A stretch of 64,000 bases of DNA, from assembly GCA_030710605.1 (NCBI GenBank), contig CP092870.1:90697042-90761041 (forward strand). Reading direction: 5' to 3'. The translations under genes were made by a program, and so were the position numbers. The stretch comes from Cordylochernes scorpioides (lineage: Eukaryota; Arthropoda; Arachnida; Pseudoscorpiones; Chernetidae). Below are positions 19,688 through 59,730 of this stretch, one piece after another (the first letter of the stretch is position 1; each line of letters begins with the position of its first letter). The notes below the pieces were generated by a model. That model ran no database searches. It had not been told where the DNA came from and saw nothing but the letters and a program-made list of their open reading frames with translations.

Positions 19688-19729
19688 ACCACGCTTACGA
19701 GGGCCAACAGCCCGAAACGCGTTTATGGT
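19688..19729 (+). ncRNA. Hammerhead-like motif, core mutated
   Basis: CTTACGA (19694-19700), stem II GGGC-CAACA-GCCC, GAA, palindromic ACGCGT, then T. The core has U where G is required (CUGANGA), which should abolish cleavage. Stem I: ACCACG against TATGGT with one mismatch. Confidence 0.5.
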
Positions 19730-19969: not shown

Positions 19970-20010
19970 CATATGCTGATGAGGGCCAATAGTCCGAAAC
20001 TCGTTCGTGG
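19970..20010 (+). ncRNA. Hammerhead ribozyme motif, consensus core
   Basis: CTGATGA (19976-19982), stem II GGGC-CAATA-GTCC with one G-U pair, GAAA (19996-19999), stem III ACTCGT with a mismatch, and cleavage base T at 20005. Stem I pairs CATATG with CGTG through two wobbles. The catalytic core is consensus; the helices are weakened. Confidence 0.65.
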
Positions 20011-20389
20011 TTGGCTTTTCTTGATTTATCAAGGAAATGGGTTGGCCAAATATCAGGGAACAAGTTGAACCAACGTTTAGTTGATTTCTGTTCCACTAGA
20101 TGGCGCTCTGCCATCTGAAATGCTCGTGTGAGCAGTCAGGATATGTCAATTTAGTTTTTTATATGTATATATATATATATTGCCATTTCAAAATAACCTT
20201 TCCATTCTAAACTTATAAATTAGCTCTATTGGACGCTATACTCAGCAATCTTTTTGATATTCAAATCAAATGTCATTTAAAGTTGTTTTTTTTTTTTCCT
20301 TTCACCAATTGAAGAAGCATGGTGTTTGAAAGCATCATGCTGATTTAGATAATGCCTTCAAACATTTTTTTTTCTATTTTCTTTTATGT

Positions 20390-20925: not shown

Positions 20926-21162
20926 TCTACTTATATAATTGCCTTATTCTGTCTGTGTGAAGTTCACGGATAGATTTTGGTCAGAATGGATAAAATAAAA
21001 AAAGTGTCAAGGGATGGGAATCGAACCCATGACCTTCCGCTTACCGGGCAGATGCCATGACCAGTAGGCCACATGACCACAATTTATAATTGTAACAAAT
21101 AGTATTTGAATCAAAACATTCAATCGGGTAAAACACGGGCGTTGCCCGGGTCATTCGGCTAG
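20926..21162 (+). mobile_element. Helitron-like element with tRNA-like unit
   Basis: 237 bp. Begins TCTACTTATATAATTGCC after an A (20925) and ends with hairpin ACGGGC-GTT-GCCCGGG (one mismatch), ten bases, then CTAG (21159-21162) before a T. Those are the Helitron hallmarks: 5' TC, 3' hairpin plus CTRR, insertion between A and T. Non-autonomous; no Rep/helicase sequence. The same ends occur at 23656-24321, and the same 3' end at 22706-23005. Confidence 0.7.
21005..21077 (-). pseudogene. tRNA-like Pol III unit inside Helitron
   Basis: 73 nt. Minus strand: A-box region GTGGCCTACTGGTCATGG, anticodon stem TCTGC/GCGGA around loop CCGGTAA, T arm ATGGG-TTCGATT-CCCAT (perfect 5 bp), 3' acceptor CCTTGAC, then seven T residues. 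If the loop is read as seven bases the anticodon is GGT, but position 33 is C instead of the near-universal U. Looks like a captured tRNA gene or tRNA-derived SINE head. The matching copy at 24019-24092 argues it travels with the element. Confidence 0.6.
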
Positions 21163-21179
21163 TATAATATAATTAATTA

Positions 21180-21370
21180 AGACATCTCTTTATCGTGCAA
21201 CTGAAATTAACTGATGGCTGACGCCATCTATTGGAATAAATATCAACAATTCGTTGATTTTTAATTATTCCAGAATTGGCCAAACACCCATTCTTGATTA
21301 ATCAAGAAAATCTAAACACGGACGCGTTTCTGGCTGTTGGCCCTCGTCAGCGTGGTGTAAGCTGTACCTC
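21180..21370 (-). repeat. PLE-type repeat with hammerhead
   Basis: TTTATCGTGCAACTGAAATTAACTGATGGC and GCCATCTATTGGAATAAATATCAAC arms lead into the hammerhead motif at 21315-21356 on the minus strand. Order and orientation match the reverse of 19660-19880. Confidence 0.6.
21315..21356 (-). ncRNA. Hammerhead ribozyme motif
   Basis: Minus strand: stem I CCACG, core CTGACGA (21350-21344), stem II GGGC-CAACA-GCCA (three good pairs plus a basal G/A mismatch), GAAA (21330-21327), self-complementary ACGCGT, cleavage base C (21321), then CGTG pairing back to CACG. All core positions fit CUGANGA...GAAA...UH, with cleavage triplet GUC. Confidence 0.7.
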
Positions 21371-21419: not shown

Positions 21420-21850
21420 GGTAGTTAAGGCCAGAAGTGCATCAGGACGCTAAACAATGTGAAAAAATAATAAAATGGAAATTGTACTGGCGATATTTGA
21501 ATCTGCGGGAAAACTCAATAACCTGGCTCTGCAAGGTTACATGAGGCAATGGTTGAGGCAGCATAGTGAAGAAAGTCTATGCTACAGTAAGGACAACAAG
21601 TCTCCAGCCGGCCAAGCAAACACTTCAGTCTCTCCTTTGTCTCACTCATTCTGACAGCTCCAAACAACGTGGGGGTTTGACCCTCCCCCTTACCACATCA
21701 CAATCCCCCCCCTTCGAACCCCTCACTTCTAAGAACATCCCCCTAAATCTCTTTGTTTCACCTTAACCCTTGTATTGGACAACTCACGCAGCCATGGCTT
21801 ATGAGAGGTTAAAATGATATAATCAAAAATACGTATAGATGTGGCGTCTA
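21420..21850. other. Moderate-GC segment, no gene recognised
   Basis: 21480-21790 is unusually balanced in composition and has proline-rich short frames (66 codons from 21566). No motif known to me. It could be a decayed retroelement or a fragment of host sequence. Confidence 0.3.
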
Positions 21851-22180
21851 GATTGAATGTCTATTTTGAAGGGAGAGATGACCATTATTTTTATAGATAT
21901 ATTTCCTCATGGCAAAATCTCCATCTGTATTTGGGCTATAGATTTGGTCCAGCCACTTTGCCAGCTAAACAATTATTTGACGGATTGTGAAGATTCCATT
22001 TAATCCCTTGTGGAACTCGTGGAATAAAATCCTCTCGATACCATGGTCTCTAGATGGACGTTTCTCAGTTTGCCAAAGCTGCTGTTGTGGCTTTGTCACC
22101 GAACCGAGGCCGCTAATTTGTGGCGACGGTCAATAGATGGCGTAGAGTTTTGACGTCTATTTTGACAGAAGAGCTGACCT
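21850..22180 (+). repeat. PLE-type repeat, ribozyme core deleted
   Basis: CCATGGTCTCTAGATGGACG (about 22042), CAGTTTGCCAAAGCTG, GGCTTTGTCACCGAACCGAG and GGCGACGGTCAATAGATGGC match the right arm at 51421-51520. The sequence 5' of CCATGGTC is unrelated, so CTGACGA and stem II are gone. Confidence 0.6.
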
Positions 22181-23655: not shown

Positions 23656-24321
23656 CTAGACGAATGGCCCGGGCAACGCCCGGGTTTTACCCGAGTGCGT
23701 ATATATCTTTAAAACGTTTTAATTCAAATACTATTCGTTACAATTATAAATTGGCGCCATGGATGTCACTCTTTTGAAACGTCCCGTTCCAAACTGTGTG
23801 TTTTTAAAATGTTTTAATTAAAATACTATTCGTTACAATTATAAATTGGCGCCAATTTGTTTTTATACAACTTTATACAAATTTATTTTTATTCAAATAT
23901 TAGTGCTTTATAATGGCTATCTCCTTGATGTTACCAATTTAAAAGTTTATTTTCTAATTTTTGATTGTATAAGAAACATATTTTCATTTAAGTATTGTAC
24001 TTTATGAACGAAAAATATGTCCAGGGTAGCCTAGTGGTCATGGCATCTGCCCGGTAAGCGGAAGGTCGTGGGTTCGATTCCCATCCCTTGACACTTTTTT
24101 TATTTTATCCATTCTGACCAAAATCTATCCGTGAACTTCACACAGTGAACTTCACACAGACAGAATAAGGCAATTATATAATTTGATTATTAATAATAAT
24201 TATTATCATTAGATAATGATAATGATCATAATGATGATGCGCGCGTTGATGACCAAAATCTATCCGTGAACTTCACACAGTGAACTTCACACAGACAGAA
24301 TAAGGCAATTATATAAGTAGA
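23656..24321 (-). mobile_element. Helitron-like element with duplicated interior and tRNA-like unit
   Basis: 666 bp, inserted in a TA microsatellite. On the minus strand it begins TCTACTTATATAATTGCC (from 24321) and ends with CCCGGGC-GTT-GCCCGGG, CCATTCGT, CTAG (23656) before T. Two internal duplications: TTAATTCAAATACTATTCG/ TTACAATTATAAATTGGCGCC (about 23712-23758 and 23812-23853), and the end block with GACCAAAATCTATCCGTG (24116-24183 and 24250-24315). Confidence 0.7.
24019..24092 (+). pseudogene. tRNA-like Pol III unit inside Helitron
   Basis: 74 nt: acceptor GTCCAGG/CCTTGAC (six of seven pairs), A box TAGCCTAGTGG matching TRGYNNARNGG, anticodon stem TCTGC/GCGGA with loop CCGGTAA, T arm GTGGG-TTCGATT-CCCAT, B box GTTCGATTC, then T7 starting at 24095. 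All elements for Pol III transcription are present. No encoded CCA; C at position 33 argues against a working tRNA. Confidence 0.65.
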
Positions 24322-24338
24322 TATATATATATCAAGAA

Positions 24339-24656
24339 AATGCAACCAATGTAATTTACAAAATTCCCTGCCAAACATGTCAAGCTACATACATTGGAGA
24401 AACAGGTAAATCACTTAAAGATCGTATAAATCAACATAAAGCAGCTTTAAAAAACTACAAACCTTTATCCCTACTAGTTGACCACTCCCTTAACAATAGC
24501 CATGTACCAGATTTCAAACAGGCCACAATTATATACAGAAATATAACAGAAAAGCATTGTAGACTGTTTTTAGAAAGTTGGGCTTCTGCCGAAGATAAAC
24601 ACAGTATAAACAGAAAAATTGATTTCCCAGAGGTTTATAAAGAATTCATATCTTAA
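24339..24656 (+). pseudogene. GIY-YIG endonuclease domain, Penelope-like element fragment
   Basis: About 105 codons ending in TAA at 24654-24656, open from just after the TAG at 24318. Near its start it reads NVIYKIPCQTCQATYIGETG followed by KSLKDRINQH, which is the GIY-YIG pattern (here VIY..YIG) with the C-x2-C insert and downstream R and H typical of the C-terminal nuclease of Penelope-like retroelements. The catalytic Tyr, Arg and a later Glu (LFLESW) are visible. The nuclease would nick the target DNA for priming. The reverse transcriptase that should lie upstream is absent: sequence is replaced at a TA run by the Helitron-like element. 5'-truncated remnant, frame intact over the part that remains. 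Confidence 0.8.
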
Positions 24657-25050: not shown

Positions 25051-27518
25051 CAGTAGAACTCCTCAAATTCGGAAATTCTGAAATTCGGAAAGTATTGTAA
25101 TGTTTTTTTTACATACAAAAAATCAATTTTCACATGCTTTTATTTTGTTGATATTTCAACATTATTTTATTTTATTTTATTTTATTTACTTTTACTTTTG
25201 CTTTGCTTTTATTTTATTTTATTTAATTTTTATTAGTAATTTATTTTTAATTTAAGTGTTTAATTAATTTACTTTTACCGATTATTTATAATCGCTAATT
25301 AGGGGTTTATCCCCCTTTTTTAAAAGTTTAAATAAATCAACAGTTTCATTTGACCTTTGTGCTTAGTTTAGGATATTGTCCAATAAGAAGGCAGCATTAT
25401 TACGTCATAAGCCATTCACGCATTTTTTATTGCAAAGTTGATTCACCTAAAGTTCAAATTATCAAACATTTTCAGACATTGTAAGTTTCAAATTCTTTTA
25501 TTCAACTCTCAATTTTTTGCATTTACAAGTTTGTTCTTCAACAAAATGGCATCCAAAGAGGAGCGGCAAAAACGAGGCAAGTACCGAATTCTTAAGCTGG
25601 TGACATTAAAAAAGGATTAAGCTATACAACGATAATGCAAAAGTATAAAATATCTAAGACAACTGTTTATGATATAAAAAAGTCTGAGCTTAAACTTACA
25701 AAGTTTGTTGATTCTACCGAAAAAGATGTCAAAAAGTTTTCTCAAGTAAAAAATCCGTTATACGAAAATGTTGATAAAGCAGTTAACATCTGGTACGAAA
25801 GTCAGAGATTATCAGGGGTTCCTATTCGTGGTATTGAACTCCAAACAGCTGCCAGTCATTTTGCATCAAAATTGAATAATCCCACTTTTAAAGCTAGTGG
25901 TGGATGGTTGTCACGATACAGAGCCAGACATAATTTGAAAAATAAAAAAGTTGTCGGGGAAGCATTGAGTGCTGACGAAGATGCAGCTAATCGCTTTAAA
26001 GATGATTTTCACAAACTAATGACTGACGAAAAGTATGAACAGTTCCAAATTTATAATGCTGACGAAACAAGAGTTTACTGGAAGTCATTACCCGATAATT
26101 CTCAAGTCAAAAATGCAAACAGCGCTAGTGGTCATAAGCAATCCAAAGATCGACTCTCTGTTTTACTTTGTGCAAATGCAGACGATTCACATAAAAATGT
26201 TTTGGCTGTTGTTGGAAAATCAAAACGTCCAAGAGCAATCAAAAACATCATTGATCGATTGCCTGTCCATTACTATTCTTCACACAAGGCTTGGTTTAAT
26301 CAAAGCATTTTTAGTGAATGGTTTTTTTAAACGGTTCATAAACGAAGTTCGCAATTTTCAAGAAAATAAGTTAAGAGTTGCTCCAGATCAAGTAAAAGCA
26401 TTACTACTAGTTGACAATTCTCCTGCTCATCCAACAGAGCTGATCAGTAATGACGGCAACATTAAATGCAAGTTTTTACCACCTAATACAACATCTGTAT
26501 TGCAGCCTATGGACCAGGGAGTTATTGTTGCCTTTAAAAGGTTGTATAAACGAAGACAGTTAGAAAGTTGTTTAGTATTTTCAAGTGATGCAGATCAGCC
26601 AAATAACTCTGTGGGTGAACAAACTTTTTCTAATTTTAAAAAGTACGACATCAAGAAAGCGATATTCAATTTTGGAAATTCTTGGGATGAATTAAAATCT
26701 TCTACAATAAGAAATGGATGGAAGATTTTGCTTGAACACAAAAATAATTCAGATTTGGAAACAGCAGGTGATGCATTACAATTATCCGAGGATGAATCTG
26801 ATGAAGATGAACAAGAAATTAGACGGCTGGAGCAATTATTTCAAAGAGCTAGAATTGAAGTAAATCAAGAAAGCATTAATGAATGGATCGATATAGACCT
26901 TGATGATCCAGGTCACAATGTTCTTAGCAATGATGATATAGTTGAAGCTGTTTTGAGTGAAAAAATGGAAATCAGCAGTTCTGATGATAGTTCCTCAACT
27001 TCTGAAGACAGTTTGGAGCCGGATGTTCCCAGATGCGAAGCGTTGAAAAGTTTGGATGTTGCATTAAAATATTTGGAAAAGCGCACTGAACCAGAAATGC
27101 TTGCAAGCTACAACACCATCAATAGTCTTCGAACTATGCTTATGAGAGAAGAAGAAGCTTTGTTAAACAAGCCAAAGAAACAGACAACAATCAGCAACTT
27201 CTTTGCCAAGCCATAACTTACTTGGCCATCAATTGCATTACATACATAATAAAATATTTTACTATTTTTCATCGGTTTCATGCTCAAAACTCATAAAAGT
27301 CAAGGAACATTTGATTAAAAATCGTAATTAAAATTATGTAATGTACATATAATATTCAACCTAAAATTGTTCATATGCTTCAAAATCTTTTTCTCAGTCA
27401 TCTAAATGCCTATTTATGCCACATAAATATTCACAAATCTAACTCTCTCAAATTCGGAAAATCCTCAAATTCGGAATACCTTGCGCCCCAAGCTTTCCGA
27501 ATTTGAGGAGTTCTACTG
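25051..27518 (+). mobile_element. Tigger/pogo-type DNA transposon, almost intact
   Basis: 2468 bp with TA duplications at 25049-25050 and 27519-27520. The terminal inverted repeats are identical over 25 bp, beginning CAGTAGAACTCCTCAAATTC. Subterminal copies of AAATTCGGAAA follow on both sides (25081 on; 27443-27505), probable transposase binding sites. One transposase gene inside. The perfect termini and few coding lesions indicate a recent insertion, into the TA run at the end of a Penelope-like fragment. Confidence 0.92.
25546..27216 (+). pseudogene. Tigger/pogo transposase (DDE), two frameshifts
   Basis: Start ATG at 25546 (MASKEERQKRGKYRIL). The N-terminal helix-turn-helix continues in another frame after a one-base loss near 25600 (GDIKKGLSYTTIMQKYKISK, then TTVYDIKKSE). 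A CENP-B-type DNA-binding region follows (AAVNIW-like 'AVNIWYESQRLSGVPIRG', 'GGWLSRYRARHNL'). The DDE catalytic domain has D1 in YNADETRVYW (codon 26061), D2 in LLLVDNSPAHP (26413) and D3 in VLQPMDQGVI (26512), spacing D2-32-D3. A second frameshift lies in the T7 run at 26323-26329, where one T too many separates SEWFF from KRFINEV. The C-terminal third is acidic and ends KQTTISNFFAKP, with QTTISNFF matching a PCNA-interacting (PIP) box; pogo transposase is known to bind PCNA through such a motif. With both lesions ignored the protein would be about 555 residues, normal for Tigger. Acts in the nucleus on its own terminal repeats. Confidence 0.9.
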
Positions 27519-45252: not shown

Positions 45253-46359
45253 GTGTCGAGCCAATCCTGCTATAACAGGGATCAGAAGGTGGCAAAAACT
45301 CAAGAGAGCGTGCAGAGGACAGCGGCACTCAGAATCACAGGGGGATATCGCACTACCAGCAGTAAGGCCTTTTTGGTCCTCGCTGGGCTTATTCCCCTGG
45401 GATTGAAACTAGAGGAGGAGACCATCAGACAGAAGATCTATGAGAACAGTAAAGATGCCCTGGGACTTGAAGAGGGTGCCCTGGAATGGAAGAGGGACCC
45501 GAGGAAGCCTCCGCAGTGGTTGCCAAAGTGGAATTGGAGTCCTGGAGGGCCGACAGGGATTGGCACGGAGGTTTTCACTGATGGTAGTAAGTCTGGAACC
45601 AATACTGGAGCTGGAGTAGTGATTTTCACTAATGGAGAGCTGATCTTCCAAGCAAGCTTAACACTCAGAGTGGACGAATTGGTCTTTTCAGCCGAGCTGG
45701 TTGCGATCAGGGTAGCCCTCAGAGTGTGTGCCAAGAAGAACTTCAGCCCGGACTGCCTCTATTCTGATTGTATGTCGGCCCTCGTTGCCATCAATCTGGT
45801 GAAAGGGCAACTCGCGCATCAAATAATCCAGGAGCTGGAGATAACGCGGGCTCCGGAGCTCAATTGGGTTAGGGGACACAGCCTCATCGAAGGTAATGAG
45901 TTCGCAGACAGGCTCGCTAAGGCAGGATGCTTTAGAGGTAGATCACTGAGGACCCCAGTGACCAAGAAAGAAGTTTATAGGAGGATCAGGGGGCACGTCC
46001 AGGACTTATGGTTGGACAGATGGAGGAACAGTGTGAAGGGGAGAGAGGTATTCAATTGGGTAACAACACCCAAGTACCTCTGTAAGTTAATGTCCCACAA
46101 ATTCATTAGGGTAATTCGGGACATGGGCTCTTCCCCAAGTCTCCACAGATTTAAAATTAAGAGAAACCCTGATTGCGTCTATGGAGAAAGGGATGTGAAT
46201 GCACGCCACTATGTCTTGGATTGTCCAAGGTTAGTGGGTGTGCAGGAAGAGAGAAGGAGGGCGAGGGGCGCGATCGAGAGTAAGCTGCTGAGAAATCACA
46301 GCAAGCTTCTTGAGAAAGCCCACGACGTGGCAGCTGAGCTTTTCCTCAGCTGTGAGTGA
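45253..46359 (+). pseudogene. LINE B: RNase H and C-terminal domain ORF
   Basis: 368 codons uninterrupted, the longest protein-like ORF in the window after the Tigger transposase. Reverse transcriptase end (VQRTAALRITGGYRTTSSKA), then RNase H with VFTDGSKSGTNTGAGVVIF (D), VFSAELVAIRVALRV (E), LYSDCMSALVAI (D, usual Ser replaced by Cys) and LNWVRGHSLIEGNEFADRLA (H, N, D): all four acidic/His positions are kept. The tail has CVYGERDVNARHYVLDCP, a C-x-G..H..C zinc-like motif. The Met at 45253 is only the first in frame; the true polyprotein began far upstream. Upstream lesions make it a pseudogene even though this part is open. 3' untranslated sequence to about 46430. Confidence 0.85.
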
Positions 46360-49400: not shown

Positions 49401-49693
49401 AAATATGTTTGAAAGTATTTTGCCTCTTGGGTTTGGCGTGGAACATCCCCATAGTTGATGTTTGGCATTAAGGTCACCTACAATAATAGTGTTGTCTGTA
49501 AGAAATTGAGCCATTGTTCCATCGTCAATAAGTGTATTGTTTGGAGGGTGATACATATTGTATATGTTGATGGCTTTGTTTTGATTGAGGTAGACTTTGA
49601 TATCTTGGGCTTCGAGGTCTAATGTGTTTGAAATATTAACGGCTATGTCCTCATAGTACAAATTATTGATTAACAATGCTAGGCCACCCCCTT
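46431..49693 (-). pseudogene. LINE C: endonuclease-RT-RNase H on minus strand, decayed
   Basis: Read from 49693 downwards. Endonuclease: GGGLALLINNLYYEDIAVNI and IIVGDLNAKHQLWGCSTPNP (49450). Linker with frameshifts. Reverse transcriptase: LSKTPGPDGIHGRMI, CKNATIIPIKKLDKS (48480), GLPQGSVLSPNLFTLF (48035) and catalytic FADD (47934-47945). Thumb: MRPILEYGYQIYGTAS (47560). RNase H: FRSELIAIYEALKSI, IWILTDSRSAIQHL, then in the next frame LQWIALHVSIEGNEAADALA (46800-46740). The C-terminal region runs to about 46431, tail to tail with LINE B. At least five frame breaks. 5'-truncated within the endonuclease at the junction with LINE D. RT words differ from LINE A, so a separate but related I-like family. 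Confidence 0.85.
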
Positions 49694-50479
49694 TAACAGC
49701 ATATACAGATGGATCTTCAGACCTTACCCTGAGTTATGGAGGGGCCGGAATTAACATAATACTGCAAGATGGAACGCACATCAAAATCAAAGAAGGAGCA
49801 GGACAGATTTCGTCAAACTTCACTTGTGAACTGACAGCTATCTGGAAAGCCCTTGATGTATGCCTTAATCAACCATCCCTGCATCAAGCAGAAGGAAATT
49901 TAATATATAGCGACTCCATATCCGCTCTAGAAGCAATTCAGAAGGGCAATACTAAAATCACACAGAAAATACACTCGTTACTTACTCAACTGGAACCATT
50001 GGAAAATAACTGCATTCTACAATGGATCCCTGCCCATGCTGGGATCGGGGGTAATGAAATGGCATTTGAATTGGCAAAGGAAGCCAGAAAGTTGAGCCAA
50101 AGGAAAGAACAAATGTCATTATTTGACGCTGATTCTTTGTCAAAATACAAGATAATTAAACAATAAATAAGAAAAGATCAAAATGCGAAATAAACTCTGA
50201 GAGAAAAATGACAAAAACTATAACAAGACTTAGAACAAAACACTATAACAAGACTTAGAACAAAACACTATAAAGGAATGACAATACATCCAGATGGCAC
50301 AATAACCTATAGGGCATGCAACAATTGTCCTGGTGTGGAACTTACACCTACCCACATATTCTCATAGCCAGCAATGGCCGCAGCCTTGCAGAAATTTGAC
50401 ACAGACCCAGAGCTGCAGCTTTACACACCCAAGATAGTAGACATTGCTGCTGCTTTGATGGAGATGCATGGATACATCT
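49694..50479 (+). pseudogene. LINE D: RNase H and C-terminal Cys motif
   Basis: RNase H from LTAYTDGSSDLTLSYGGAGI (D), FTCELTAIWKAL (E), NLIYSDSISALEAI (D), LQWIPAHAGIGGNEMAFELA (His and Asn kept, but the final Asp of GNE-x-AD is Phe). Open to about 50164, then, after stops, ITRLRTKHYKGMTIHPDG, CNNCPGVELTPTHIF (C-x2-C-x8-H) and MEMHGYI with stop at 50477-50479. Same family as LINE E. It begins abruptly at the LINE C junction. Together with LINE A (41600-44065) it could be one element split by LINEs B and C. Confidence 0.85.
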
Positions 50480-51180: not shown

Positions 51181-51248
51181 TTTAATACCAATACCTGACC
51201 ATTTTTACTATTTTTAAAAATGTGTTTTATATACACATACCTCGTATA

Positions 51249-51570
51249 TCCAAAGAGACAAGGGTCGCCTCTCCCGTCAAAACTAGACGCCATCCATTAA
51301 CCGTCGCCGCAACTAGCGGCCTCGGGTCGGTGACAAAGCCACAATACCAGCTTTGGCAAACTGAAAAGCGTCCACCTAGAGACCATGGTTTCGGGCTAAT
51401 GGCCCTCGTCAGTCTAGGGCGGTCTCTAGGTGGACGCTTTTCAGTTTGCCAAAGCTGGTGTTGTGGCTTTGTCACCGACCCGAGGCCGCTAGTTGCGGCG
51501 ACGGTCAATGGATGGCGTCTGGTTTTAGACGTCTGTTTTGATGGGAGAGGCGACCCTTGTCTCTTTGGAT
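51249..51570. repeat. Large inverted repeat around a hammerhead
   Basis: The left arm (about 51249-51384) and right arm (51421-51570) are near-perfect inverses: CAAGGGTCGCCTCTCCCG / GGGAGAGGCGACCCTTG, CCGTCGCCGCAACTAGCGGC / GCCGCTAGTTGCGGCGACGG, CTTTGGCAAACTGAAAAGCG / CGCTTTTCAGTTTGCCAAAG. The right arm has a roughly 15-bp extra segment (GACGTCTGTTTTGAT). The long frames here on both strands are by-products of the inverted repeat. One arm recurs at 21850-22180 and 56560-56735. Confidence 0.85.
51375..51418 (-). ncRNA. Hammerhead ribozyme, complete consensus
   Basis: Minus strand, 44 nt: stem I CCTAGA (51418-51413), core CTGACGA (51412-51406), stem II GGGC-CATTA-GCCC (51405-51393), GAAA (51392-51389), self-complementary stem III ACCATGGT, cleavage base C (51381), then TCTAGG (51380-51375) closing stem I with six perfect pairs. 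All core positions match CUGANGA/GAAA/UH and the cleavage triplet is GUC. The six-base palindrome CCATGG (two-base loop if folded in cis) suggests it may work as a dimer, as known for other hammerheads with tiny stem III. Predicted cut between 51381 and 51380. Confidence 0.85.
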
Positions 51571-51655
51571 CAATTTCCTCCCGGCAAAATTTCCATCTAT
51601 ACACATATATATATATATACACCTTACACAAAACGGTTAGCTATTACTATAGTAT

Positions 51656-56559: not shown

Positions 56560-56780
56560 ACCTCTCCCGTCGAAATAAATGTCAAAACTAGACTTCATCT
56601 ATTGACTGTCGCCGCAAACTAGCAGACCCAGGTCGATGACAAAGCCACAACACCAACTTTGGCAAACTGAGAAGCGTCCACCTAGAGACCATGGTTTCGG
56701 GCTAATGGCCCTCGTCAGTCTAGGGCGGACTTTATTCCATGAGATCCACACGGGATTTTAGAAGGAGATGCCTCTTTTGG
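56560..56780 (-). repeat. PLE-type repeat with hammerhead
   Basis: One arm of the 51249-51570 palindrome (AACCTCTCCCGTCGAAATAA, ACTGTCGCCGCAAACTAGCA, AAAGCCACAACACCAACTTTG) leading into the hammerhead. To the right it continues with ACTTTATTCCATGAGATCCA, the sequence also found at about 22015-22030. Confidence 0.7.
56681..56724 (-). ncRNA. Hammerhead ribozyme, complete consensus
   Basis: Same 44 nt as at 51375-51418: stem I CCTAGA/TCTAGG, CTGACGA (56718-56712), stem II GGGC-CATTA-GCCC, GAAA, ACCATGGT, cleavage base C (56687). This copy is not in a palindrome, so it can fold without competition from a second arm. Confidence 0.85.
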
Positions 56781-59090: not shown

Positions 59091-59142
59091 GAAATCTTTC
59101 GTTAGTATTCAAGACCTCGTAAACACCTTAACTCTATCACTG

Positions 59143-59730
59143 CCTATAACACGCCTGAATGTGTTTATGTGTCTTTCTTCAGGAGCCTATAACACGCCTG
59201 AGTGTGATTATGTGTCTTTCCTCAGGAGCCTATAACACGCCTGAGTGTGATTATGTGTCTTTCCTCAGGAGCCTATAACACGCCTTCGTGTGATTTTGAG
59301 CCTTTCCTCAGGAGACTATAACACGCCTGCGTGTGATTTTGGGCCTTTCCTCAGGAGACTATAACACGCCTGCGTGTGATTTTGGGCCTTTCCTCAGGAG
59401 ACTATAACACGCCTTCGTGTGATTTTGAGCCTTTCCTCAGGAGACTATAACACGCCTGAATGTGTTTATGTGTCTTTCCTCAGGAGACTATAACACGCCT
59501 GAATGTGTTTATGTGTCTTTCCTCAGGAGCCTATAACACGCCTGAATGTGTTTATGTGTCTTTCCTCAGGAGCCTATAACACGCCTGAATGTGTTTATGT
59601 GTCTTTCCTCAGGAGCCTATAACACGCCTGAATGTGATTATGTGTCTTTCCTCAGGAGCCTATAACACACCTGTGTGATTATGAGCGTTTCCTCAGGAGA
59701 CAATTACACGTCAGCATGTGATTGTAAGCC
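59143..59730. repeat. 43-bp minisatellite, about 14 units
   Basis: Unit CCTATAACACGCCTGAATGTG then TTTATGTGTCTTTCCTCAGGAG, 43 bp. At least four variants distinguished by GAATGTGTTTATGTGTC, GAGTGTGATTATGTGTC, TTCGTGTGATTTTGAGCC and GCGTGTGATTTTGGGCC. Units 4-7 run C-D-D-C; the outer units are mostly the first type. The last two are diverged and shortened. Not coding (43 is not a multiple of 3 and the frames close). Confidence 0.95.

What the first reader, a model, noticed from the sequence alone, without database searches (positions are those of the whole stretch)
51375..51418. Textbook hammerhead ribozyme inside a 135-150 bp-arm palindrome
Seen: every core base fits CUGANGA, GAAA and UH; stem I is six perfect pairs, stem II four. 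The ribozyme sits exactly at the centre of a near-perfect inverted repeat, whose right arm also holds TCTAGG and could compete for stem I pairing. Known: hammerheads occur in Penelope-like elements and retrozymes of animals. Inference: transcripts from the minus strand would self-cleave at 51381/51380.
Basis: partly seen in the sequence, partly recalled or inferred. Interest (0 to 1): 0.8.

Follow-up and report, generated by a model that had tools for sequence, protein, structure and literature searches.

The report
Head-to-head ribozyme retroelement, probably Penelope-made
The window holds a convincing self-cleaving-RNA motif inside a mirror-image copy of a tiny non-coding mobile element; relatives in the same genome suggest that such mirror images form when both ends of a cut in the DNA are extended on the element's RNA, as Penelope retroelements are thought to do.

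Summary
Observation confirmed. Minus strand 51418-51375 is a type I hammerhead motif (6-bp stem I, 4-bp stem II, short helix III; cleavage 51381/51380) at the centre of an inverted repeat (arms 137 and 150 nt). Rfam has no hit, but the 25-nt core occurs 10,259 times exactly in the 2.6-Gb genome (control 0) and a second family covaries in stems I and II. The palindrome is not the native context: it is a head-to-head insertion of a non-coding 319/320-nt retrozyme that also forms tandem arrays. Of 39 palindromic copies (sample drawn with a palindrome query), 35 have one 'short' (~145) and one 'tail' (~177) end. In listed samples close inverted pairs are head-to-head (11 and 4 hammerhead pairs of two families, 15 arm pairs, 11 GIY-YIG endonuclease pairs; none opposite). 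Flanks often carry ~10-14-bp duplications. This matches the published one-sided tail of Penelope-like elements. Best explanation: Penelope-type reverse transcriptase mobilises the retrozyme, primes from both cut strands at two adjacent RNA sites, and the cDNAs are joined near the hammerhead. In this copy the long hairpin probably suppresses cleavage. Known kind, new structural variant; cleavage and mobilisation are inferred.

The parts
51375..51418 (-). Type I hammerhead ribozyme motif; predicted cleavage between 51381 and 51380
   Evidence: Sequence; genome copies; covariation with a second family
51248..51384 (-). Left arm: antisense copy of the retrozyme up to position 146 ('short' end at 51248)
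51421..51570 (+). Right arm: sense copy of the retrozyme up to position ~146
51571..51601 (+). 31-nt 'tail' present only on the right arm (ends CATCTATA, retrozyme position 177)
   Evidence: 35 of 39 palindromic copies have one short and one tail end
51230..51239 (+). Possible target-site duplication, left copy (TATACACATA)
   Evidence: exact 10-bp match to 51598-51607, but 8 unexplained nt lie between it and the arm, and this locus scores only 7
51598..51607 (+). Possible target-site duplication, right copy (overlaps the last 4 nt of the tail)
51240..51247 (.). 8-nt filler (CCTCGTAT) between the possible duplication and the left arm
56562..56756 (-). Second, single-orientation copy of the same retrozyme, with an identical 44-nt hammerhead at 56681-56724
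21835..22173 (+). Diverged third copy (78% identity), spanning more than one unit

Best explanation
51248-51601 is one insertion of a non-autonomous hammerhead retrozyme of an animal genome (319/320-nt monomer). SHOWN by sequence: the motif, the monomer and its arrays, thousands of copies, contiguous inversions only head-to-head, one short and one tail end, frequent flanking duplications, AT-rich targets, heterogeneous centres, GIY-YIG endonuclease domains with the same pair orientation. INFERRED: tandem transcripts cleave themselves into unit-length (possibly circular) RNA; a Penelope-like protein cuts AT-rich DNA on both strands, leaving 3' overhangs of ~10-14 nt; both overhangs prime reverse transcription, one at position ~177 and one ~31 nt upstream at ~145 of retrozyme RNA, in at least part of the cases the same or a near-identical RNA; both cDNAs run towards the ribozyme region, where they are joined, often over microhomology. 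The product is rc(arm)-hammerhead-arm. One-sided insertions give tandem or truncated single copies. In this palindromic copy the arm-arm hairpin out-competes the ribozyme fold, so it is probably a largely inactive by-product.
For: Monomer arrays: 319-nt steps in L036, 320 and 289 in L046, 318 in L021. 10,259 exact ribozyme cores and 29,270 arm matches with <=3 mismatches, controls 0. First 100 listed ribozymes: 11 close -+ pairs, 0 +-; first 100 listed exact arms, partly the same loci: 15 -+, 0 +-. Second family, first 100 of 14,487: 4 -+, 0 +-. Contiguous blocks (gap <60): 39 -+ and 0 +- in the palindrome-query sample, 9 -+ and 0 +- in 15 further loci. Ends: short/tail 35 of 39, short/short 2, tail/tail 1, other 1 (4 duplicate loci dropped); seven one-sided copies end 3 short: 4 tail (partly by eye), so about half would be mixed under independence. 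Duplications scoring >=9 in 20 of 39 against 14.7% with permuted flanks; 12 of the 20 not flagged as TA repeat. Flank AT 0.756 against 0.658 background, p 1.4e-6. In 31 usable palindromes the two arms share 22 rare variants against a permuted mean of 2.35, maximum 10 in 2000. 146 GIY-YIG matches: 11 of 11 close pairs -+. Published: a Penelope-like protein cleaves and extends both strands at AT-rich sites and starts at two adjacent RNA sites that bound the genomic 'tail' (PMC11167929); rotifer Penelope copies have inverted pseudo-LTRs, head-to-head most often, with an optional 31-bp tail on one (PMC3846280, passages).
Against: No RNA, protein or cleavage data. Only one endonuclease locus (L049) was read: its RT frame matches RVT_1, but hmmscan of its endonuclease-bearing frame gave no Pfam family; calling it Penelope rests on recall of the family's RT and nuclease pairing. 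The same paper that supports two start sites reports no difference between top and bottom strand, and that hammerhead mutants insert equally well in vitro, so neither one-site-per-strand nor ribozyme-processed template is supported there. 19 of 39 palindromes score below 9 for duplications. 20 of 31 palindromes share no rare variant between arms, and the partner arm is the nearest neighbour for only 12 left and 8 right arms of 31. Units of the L036 arrays are not identical. Separate neighbouring blocks 60-499 nt apart in +- order exist: L022, L032 twice, L057.
Confidence: 0.72

Rival explanations
1. Snap-back: a single cDNA, primed once, folds back on itself at the ribozyme hairpin and copies itself into the second arm (self-priming has been proposed for Penelope elements).
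For: Both inner ends lie within -50..+15 of the cleavage site in 24 of 39 palindromes, i.e. at the hairpin; arms share rare variants in 11 of 31; self-priming, on an antisense template, is proposed in PMC3846280 (passage).
Against: The arm that runs further past the cleavage site is the short-ended one in 28 of 39, yet its partner reaches ~31 nt further out to the tail site; a copy cannot extend beyond its template. Ten copies show the reverse order and would fit; one is equal.
Confidence: 0.14
2. A palindromic element that replicates as a unit (hairpin SINE, or fold-back transposon/MITE with long inverted termini).
For: Long inverted repeat, many copies, flanking duplications.
Against: Centres differ: by eye at least 25 junction types among the 32 central sequences listed; three types recur (3, 3 and 2 loci), one of them with the ribozyme on opposite arms (L017 against L033 and L039). 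The two ends are different element positions. The family also forms tandem arrays and one-sided insertions. Duplication length varies.
Confidence: 0.05
3. Inversion after insertion, recombination between tandem copies, or an assembly artefact.
For: Tandem arrays exist; palindromes are a known assembly hazard (general knowledge).
Against: Contiguous inversions are 48 head-to-head and 0 tail-to-tail in the loci mapped; duplications and the short/tail rule; same orientation in two retrozyme families and in endonuclease domains.
Confidence: 0.05
4. A chance hammerhead-like string, or a microRNA-type hairpin (the Rfam MIR5062 match).
For: No Rfam hammerhead hit; MIR5062 scores 57.6 bits, below its cut-off of 140.
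Against: Copy number, shuffles and covariation; I take the MIR5062 score to reflect any long hairpin.
Confidence: 0.03

Closest known systems
Metazoan non-LTR retrozymes (Cervera & de la Pena 2020, PMC7229834)
   Same: Type I hammerhead, some with a short palindromic helix III, ~170-400-nt tandem monomers of <50% GC, thousands of copies, target duplications, coexistence with Penelope-like elements
   Different: The parts I read (results parts 1-2 of 3, discussion, passages) describe tandem repeats and name Penelope elements as a strong candidate mobiliser; 'head-to-head' does not occur in the main text, and nothing I read there describes inverted copies or a tail
Penelope-like elements with inverted pseudo-LTRs and a 30-40-bp tail (PMC3846280 passages; PMC11167929 parts 1-2 of 4)
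   Same: Head-to-head arrangement, ~31-nt tail on one end, short target duplications, AT-rich targets, two adjacent RT start sites
   Different: This element has no reverse transcriptase or endonuclease; the whole unit is ~320 nt
Twin-primed LINE-1 insertions
   Same: Two cDNAs primed from the two sides of one break
   Different: Recalled; only a search listing seen, nothing tested: LINE-1 inversions have variable internal priming and poly(A) on one side, here both ends are at two fixed sites

Membership tests
Type I hammerhead ribozyme | Invariant core CUGANGA / GAAA / UH with three helices, open end in helix I | tested here: met
Type I hammerhead ribozyme | Helices conserved by compensatory change | tested here: met
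   16 sequences from two families: 92.5% of cells paired (slid controls at most 41.5%), 28 double-change cells against 10.5 shuffled; double changes at 4 pairs of stem I and 1 of stem II; helix III shows none. Limits: the number of pairs with a double change (5) does not exceed shuffles (4.1), I chose the rows, and some second-family rows came from a scan that required four stem II pairs
Type I hammerhead ribozyme | Match to curated covariance models | tested here: inconclusive
   No match; genome-wide RF00163 rang nowhere, controls included
Type I hammerhead ribozyme | Self-cleavage | not testable with these tools
   Needs in vitro transcription
Metazoan retrozyme | Short (~170-400 nt) tandem monomers each with a type I hammerhead | tested here: met
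   318-320-nt steps (one 289) in L036, L046, L021; GC 0.48-0.49; second family 349/350
Metazoan retrozyme | Non-autonomous, no coding sequence between units | tested here: met
   Array units are contiguous; tblastn with one RT/endonuclease pair against the window and 39 loci hit L012, L017, L022 and the window, all outside the retrozyme blocks
Metazoan retrozyme | Expressed as linear and circular RNA | not testable with these tools
   No transcriptome held
Penelope-like element (autonomous) | Encodes RT plus GIY-YIG endonuclease | tested here: not met
   Not in the unit; such genes are elsewhere in the genome (RVT_1 in L049)
Penelope-type insertion product (mechanism, not membership) | Head-to-head copies with a ~31-nt tail on one end only | tested here: met
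   35 of 39; L053, L056 and L062, the 3 of 15 further loci with both ends visible (one end each partly by eye)
Fold-back DNA transposon / MITE | Same terminal sequence at both ends, fixed-length duplication | tested here: not met
   Ends differ by ~31 nt in 35 of 39; duplication length varies

The most novel reading that the evidence does not exclude
Retrozymes are the 'SINEs' of Penelope-like elements, and the palindrome is a normal product. One reverse-transcriptase complex loads both 3' overhangs of a cut onto one hammerhead-derived RNA at two mutually exclusive sites ~31 nt apart, so each two-sided insertion gets exactly one tail, and the ribozyme region is where the two cDNAs meet and are joined.
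Probability: 0.45. Interest if true: 0.75.

Novelty: new variant of a known kind. Interest (0 to 1): 0.6.

Why it matters
In the papers I read, who moves animal retrozymes is argued from coexistence and shared ribozyme type. A Penelope-like insertion scar on the non-coding hammerhead elements themselves makes it directly testable. Because the unit is only ~320 nt and its ribozyme core occurs over ten thousand times, it could also be a clean record of how Penelope-type reverse transcription starts and joins on both strands. The palindromes are also potential sources of long double-stranded RNA.

Tried and rejected
Rfam at gathering and at E up to 10 and RF00163 over the genome: nothing usable. 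Independent priming at the two end sites was dropped after the end-pair count. That every centre is unique was corrected: some junction types recur (its automatic clustering, 9 clusters, chained unlike centres together, so types were grouped by eye). That the L036 arrays copy one circle was not supported. That both arms usually come from one RNA was weakened on recheck: 11 of 31 palindromes share at least one rare variant, 7 of 31 two or more, 20 none; for this and for the single, incompletely confirmed endonuclease locus I lowered the best explanation from 0.74 to 0.72 and the novel case from 0.50 to 0.45. The 39 palindromes came from a palindrome query (40 best-scored of 3610 candidates; one of them is the window's own) and are biased towards palindromes; less biased figures are. 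The 15 loci are consecutive listed ribozymes minus three clusters (897652/897979, 2328068, 2541230) whose listed coordinates already showed head-to-head pairs; with those, 11 of 18 consecutive clusters are head-to-head. L057 (not among the 8) also holds a -+ block pair, which makes 9 contiguous -+ pairs. Some short ends that BLAST stops at 124-128 were extended to ~141 by eye. Failed scripts. Papers not held: PMC8557442, PMC4209133.

Full report
THE MOTIF. Rfam does not report it, and a genome-wide RF00163 search was uninformative because it rang in none of 14 controls. Comparative evidence decides instead. A strict structural scan found 30 hits in 319,640 bases (window plus loci fetched for this element) and none in five Markov shuffles. 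The 25-nt core occurs 5093 + 5166 times exactly in the 2.62-Gb genome, the reversed pattern never. A second hammerhead family in the same genome has different stem I, stem II and helix III sequences. On 16 aligned sequences that I chose (7 of the first family, 9 of the second), 92.5% of pair cells are paired against at most 41.5% in slid controls, with double changes at four stem I pairs and one stem II pair. Limits: some second-family rows came from a scan that demanded four stem II pairs, helix III shows no double change, and the count of pairs with a double change (5) is not above shuffles (4.1).

THE ELEMENT. The genome search gave 115 match rows for the palindrome (40 of 3610 candidates scored). 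I fetched 40 loci, one of them the window's own place. The native unit is a tandem monomer: 319-nt steps in L036, 320 and 289 in L046, 318 in L021; GC 0.48-0.49. It fits published animal retrozymes (PMC7229834; results parts 1-2 of 3, discussion and passages read). In the monomer the sequence upstream of the ribozyme differs from that in the window: there GUCC could pair with GGAC as an outer stem I (read by eye). In the window this part is replaced by the inverted arm. Tblastn with one RT/endonuclease pair found coding traces only outside the retrozyme blocks.

ORIENTATION. In the first 100 listed ribozymes on contig 1, close inverted pairs are 11 -+ and 0 +-; in the first 100 listed arms 15 -+ and 0 +-; the two lists share loci. 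Together they make 129 clusters: 22 head-to-head, 0 tail-to-tail, 4 same-strand, 103 single. The lists hold exact matches only, so palindromes with one diverged arm count as single. Of fifteen further loci chosen from the list, 8 are inverted around the ribozyme. In block maps, contiguous pairs (gap <60) are 39 -+ and 0 +- in the first sample and 9 -+ and 0 +- in the second; separate neighbours 60-499 nt apart in +- order occur four times (L022, L032 twice, L057) and look like distinct insertions, which I did not prove. The second family (7145 + 7342 matches, control 0) has 4 -+ and 0 +- close pairs in its first 100 places, one of them joining arrays of 350-nt steps. Of 146 listed GIY-YIG matches (150 of 17,015 candidates scored), 11 close pairs are all -+; that this means head-to-head rests on the endonuclease lying at the C-terminus, as in canonical Penelope elements.

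ENDS. With positions counted from the cleavage site, the outer ends of 39 palindromes (43 pairs, less those in four duplicate loci) fall at 125-152 ('short'; several BLAST ends at 125 continue by eye to ~141) and 169-182 ('tail'): 35 mixed, 2 short/short, 1 tail/tail, 1 other. One-sided copies use both sites (3 short, 4 tail, partly by eye), so mixed ends are not forced by the sites themselves; 35 or more of 39 against one half has a probability of about 2e-7 (my arithmetic). The published Penelope 'tail' is the stretch between two adjacent RT start sites, and the enzyme cuts and extends both strands at AT-rich DNA (PMC11167929, parts 1 and 2 of 4); the same paper sees no difference in start site between strands and no effect of hammerhead mutants on insertion in vitro. 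Rotifer Penelope copies can carry a 31-bp tail on one of two inverted pseudo-LTRs, with 8-10-bp duplications in the cases quoted and none in others (PMC3846280, passages). In the window the tail is 51571-51601.

TARGETS. Duplications score 9 or more in 20 of 39 against 14.7% for permuted flanks; 12 of the 20 are not flagged as TA repeats, e.g. L012 (13 bp), L016 (12), L011, L039 and L045 (11), L013 (10). Lengths include junction bases that may belong to the element. 19 of 39 lie next to at least five TA/AT steps, and flanks are richer in AT than their surroundings (0.756 against 0.658). The window's own case (TATACACATA, 51230-51239 and 51598-51607) is plausible but carries 8 extra nt and scores only 7.

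CENTRES. Both inner ends lie between -50 and +15 of the cleavage site in 24 of 39 (each end would be there 21% of the time if uniform). The window joins GAGACC to GCCCTAGA over two shared C's (read by eye). By eye there are at least 25 junction types among 32 with a central ribozyme; seven more have none. In 31 palindromes with two usable arms, arms share 22 rare variants against 2.35 in permuted pairs, within-locus distance is 0.064 against 0.097 between loci, and the partner is nearest for 12 left and 8 right arms. So one RNA, or near-identical RNAs, served both sides in some cases (7 of 31 share two or more), and 20 of 31 show no sign of it; post-insertion mutation and age blur this. L024 has arms closest to different reference monomers. 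In 28 of 39 the arm that runs further past the cleavage site is the short-ended one, which a simple snap-back cannot give.

FUNCTION OF THIS COPY. The full palindrome folds at -286.5 (z -30.9). So this copy is likely a weak ribozyme and a possible source of double-stranded RNA; both are inferences.

LITERATURE LIMITS. Searches for retrozymes or hammerheads together with inverted, head-to-head, palindromic, pLTR or tail wording listed, among the rows shown and judged by titles and abstract openings, no paper that reports inverted retrozyme copies with a Penelope tail; the library lacks most subscription papers and two relevant ones. A curation guide already says that retrozymes may rely on Penelope elements and that Penelope copies show inverted pLTRs and 3' extensions (PMC8969392, passages); a review calls Penelope elements likely candidates for mobilisation (PMC7761336, passages). 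What is added here is the scar on the retrozymes themselves.

Noticed in passing
window 21315-21356 (-), 19970-20011 (+), 19688-19729 (+): Three further hammerhead matches; the first two belong to a second, ~350-nt family (14,487 genome matches to its core pattern), the third was not assigned.
   Followed up: partly
window 24348-24440 (+): Short fragment similar to the endonuclease-bearing frame of L049 (58% over 31 aa); the surrounding frames are broken by stops.
   Followed up: partly
window 24020-24092 (+) and 21005-21077 (-): Two tRNA matches by Rfam (54.2 and 39.4 bits); tRNA genes or SINE heads, not examined.
   Followed up: no
window 25635-27216 (+): Two overlapping frames with Tc5-type HTH and DDE_1 domains: probably a decayed Tc5/pogo-like DNA transposon.
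   Followed up: no
window 45253-46359 and 49666-50166 (+): RNase H frames, probably of non-LTR retrotransposons.
   Followed up: no
window 59142-59710: 43-bp tandem repeat, 13 copies, 93% matches; also many short 16-bp arrays of a TGGTTCACTATAGCCA-like unit elsewhere in the window.
   Followed up: no
L036:3658-5923: Head-to-head tandem arrays on both sides of one centre, with polymorphisms shared between the two sides; hints at a multi-unit or mixed RNA template.
   Followed up: partly
L049:1722-4399: Penelope-type element, seemingly in partial tandem: RT frame (RVT_1), endonuclease region, then what looks like the start of a further copy.
   Followed up: partly
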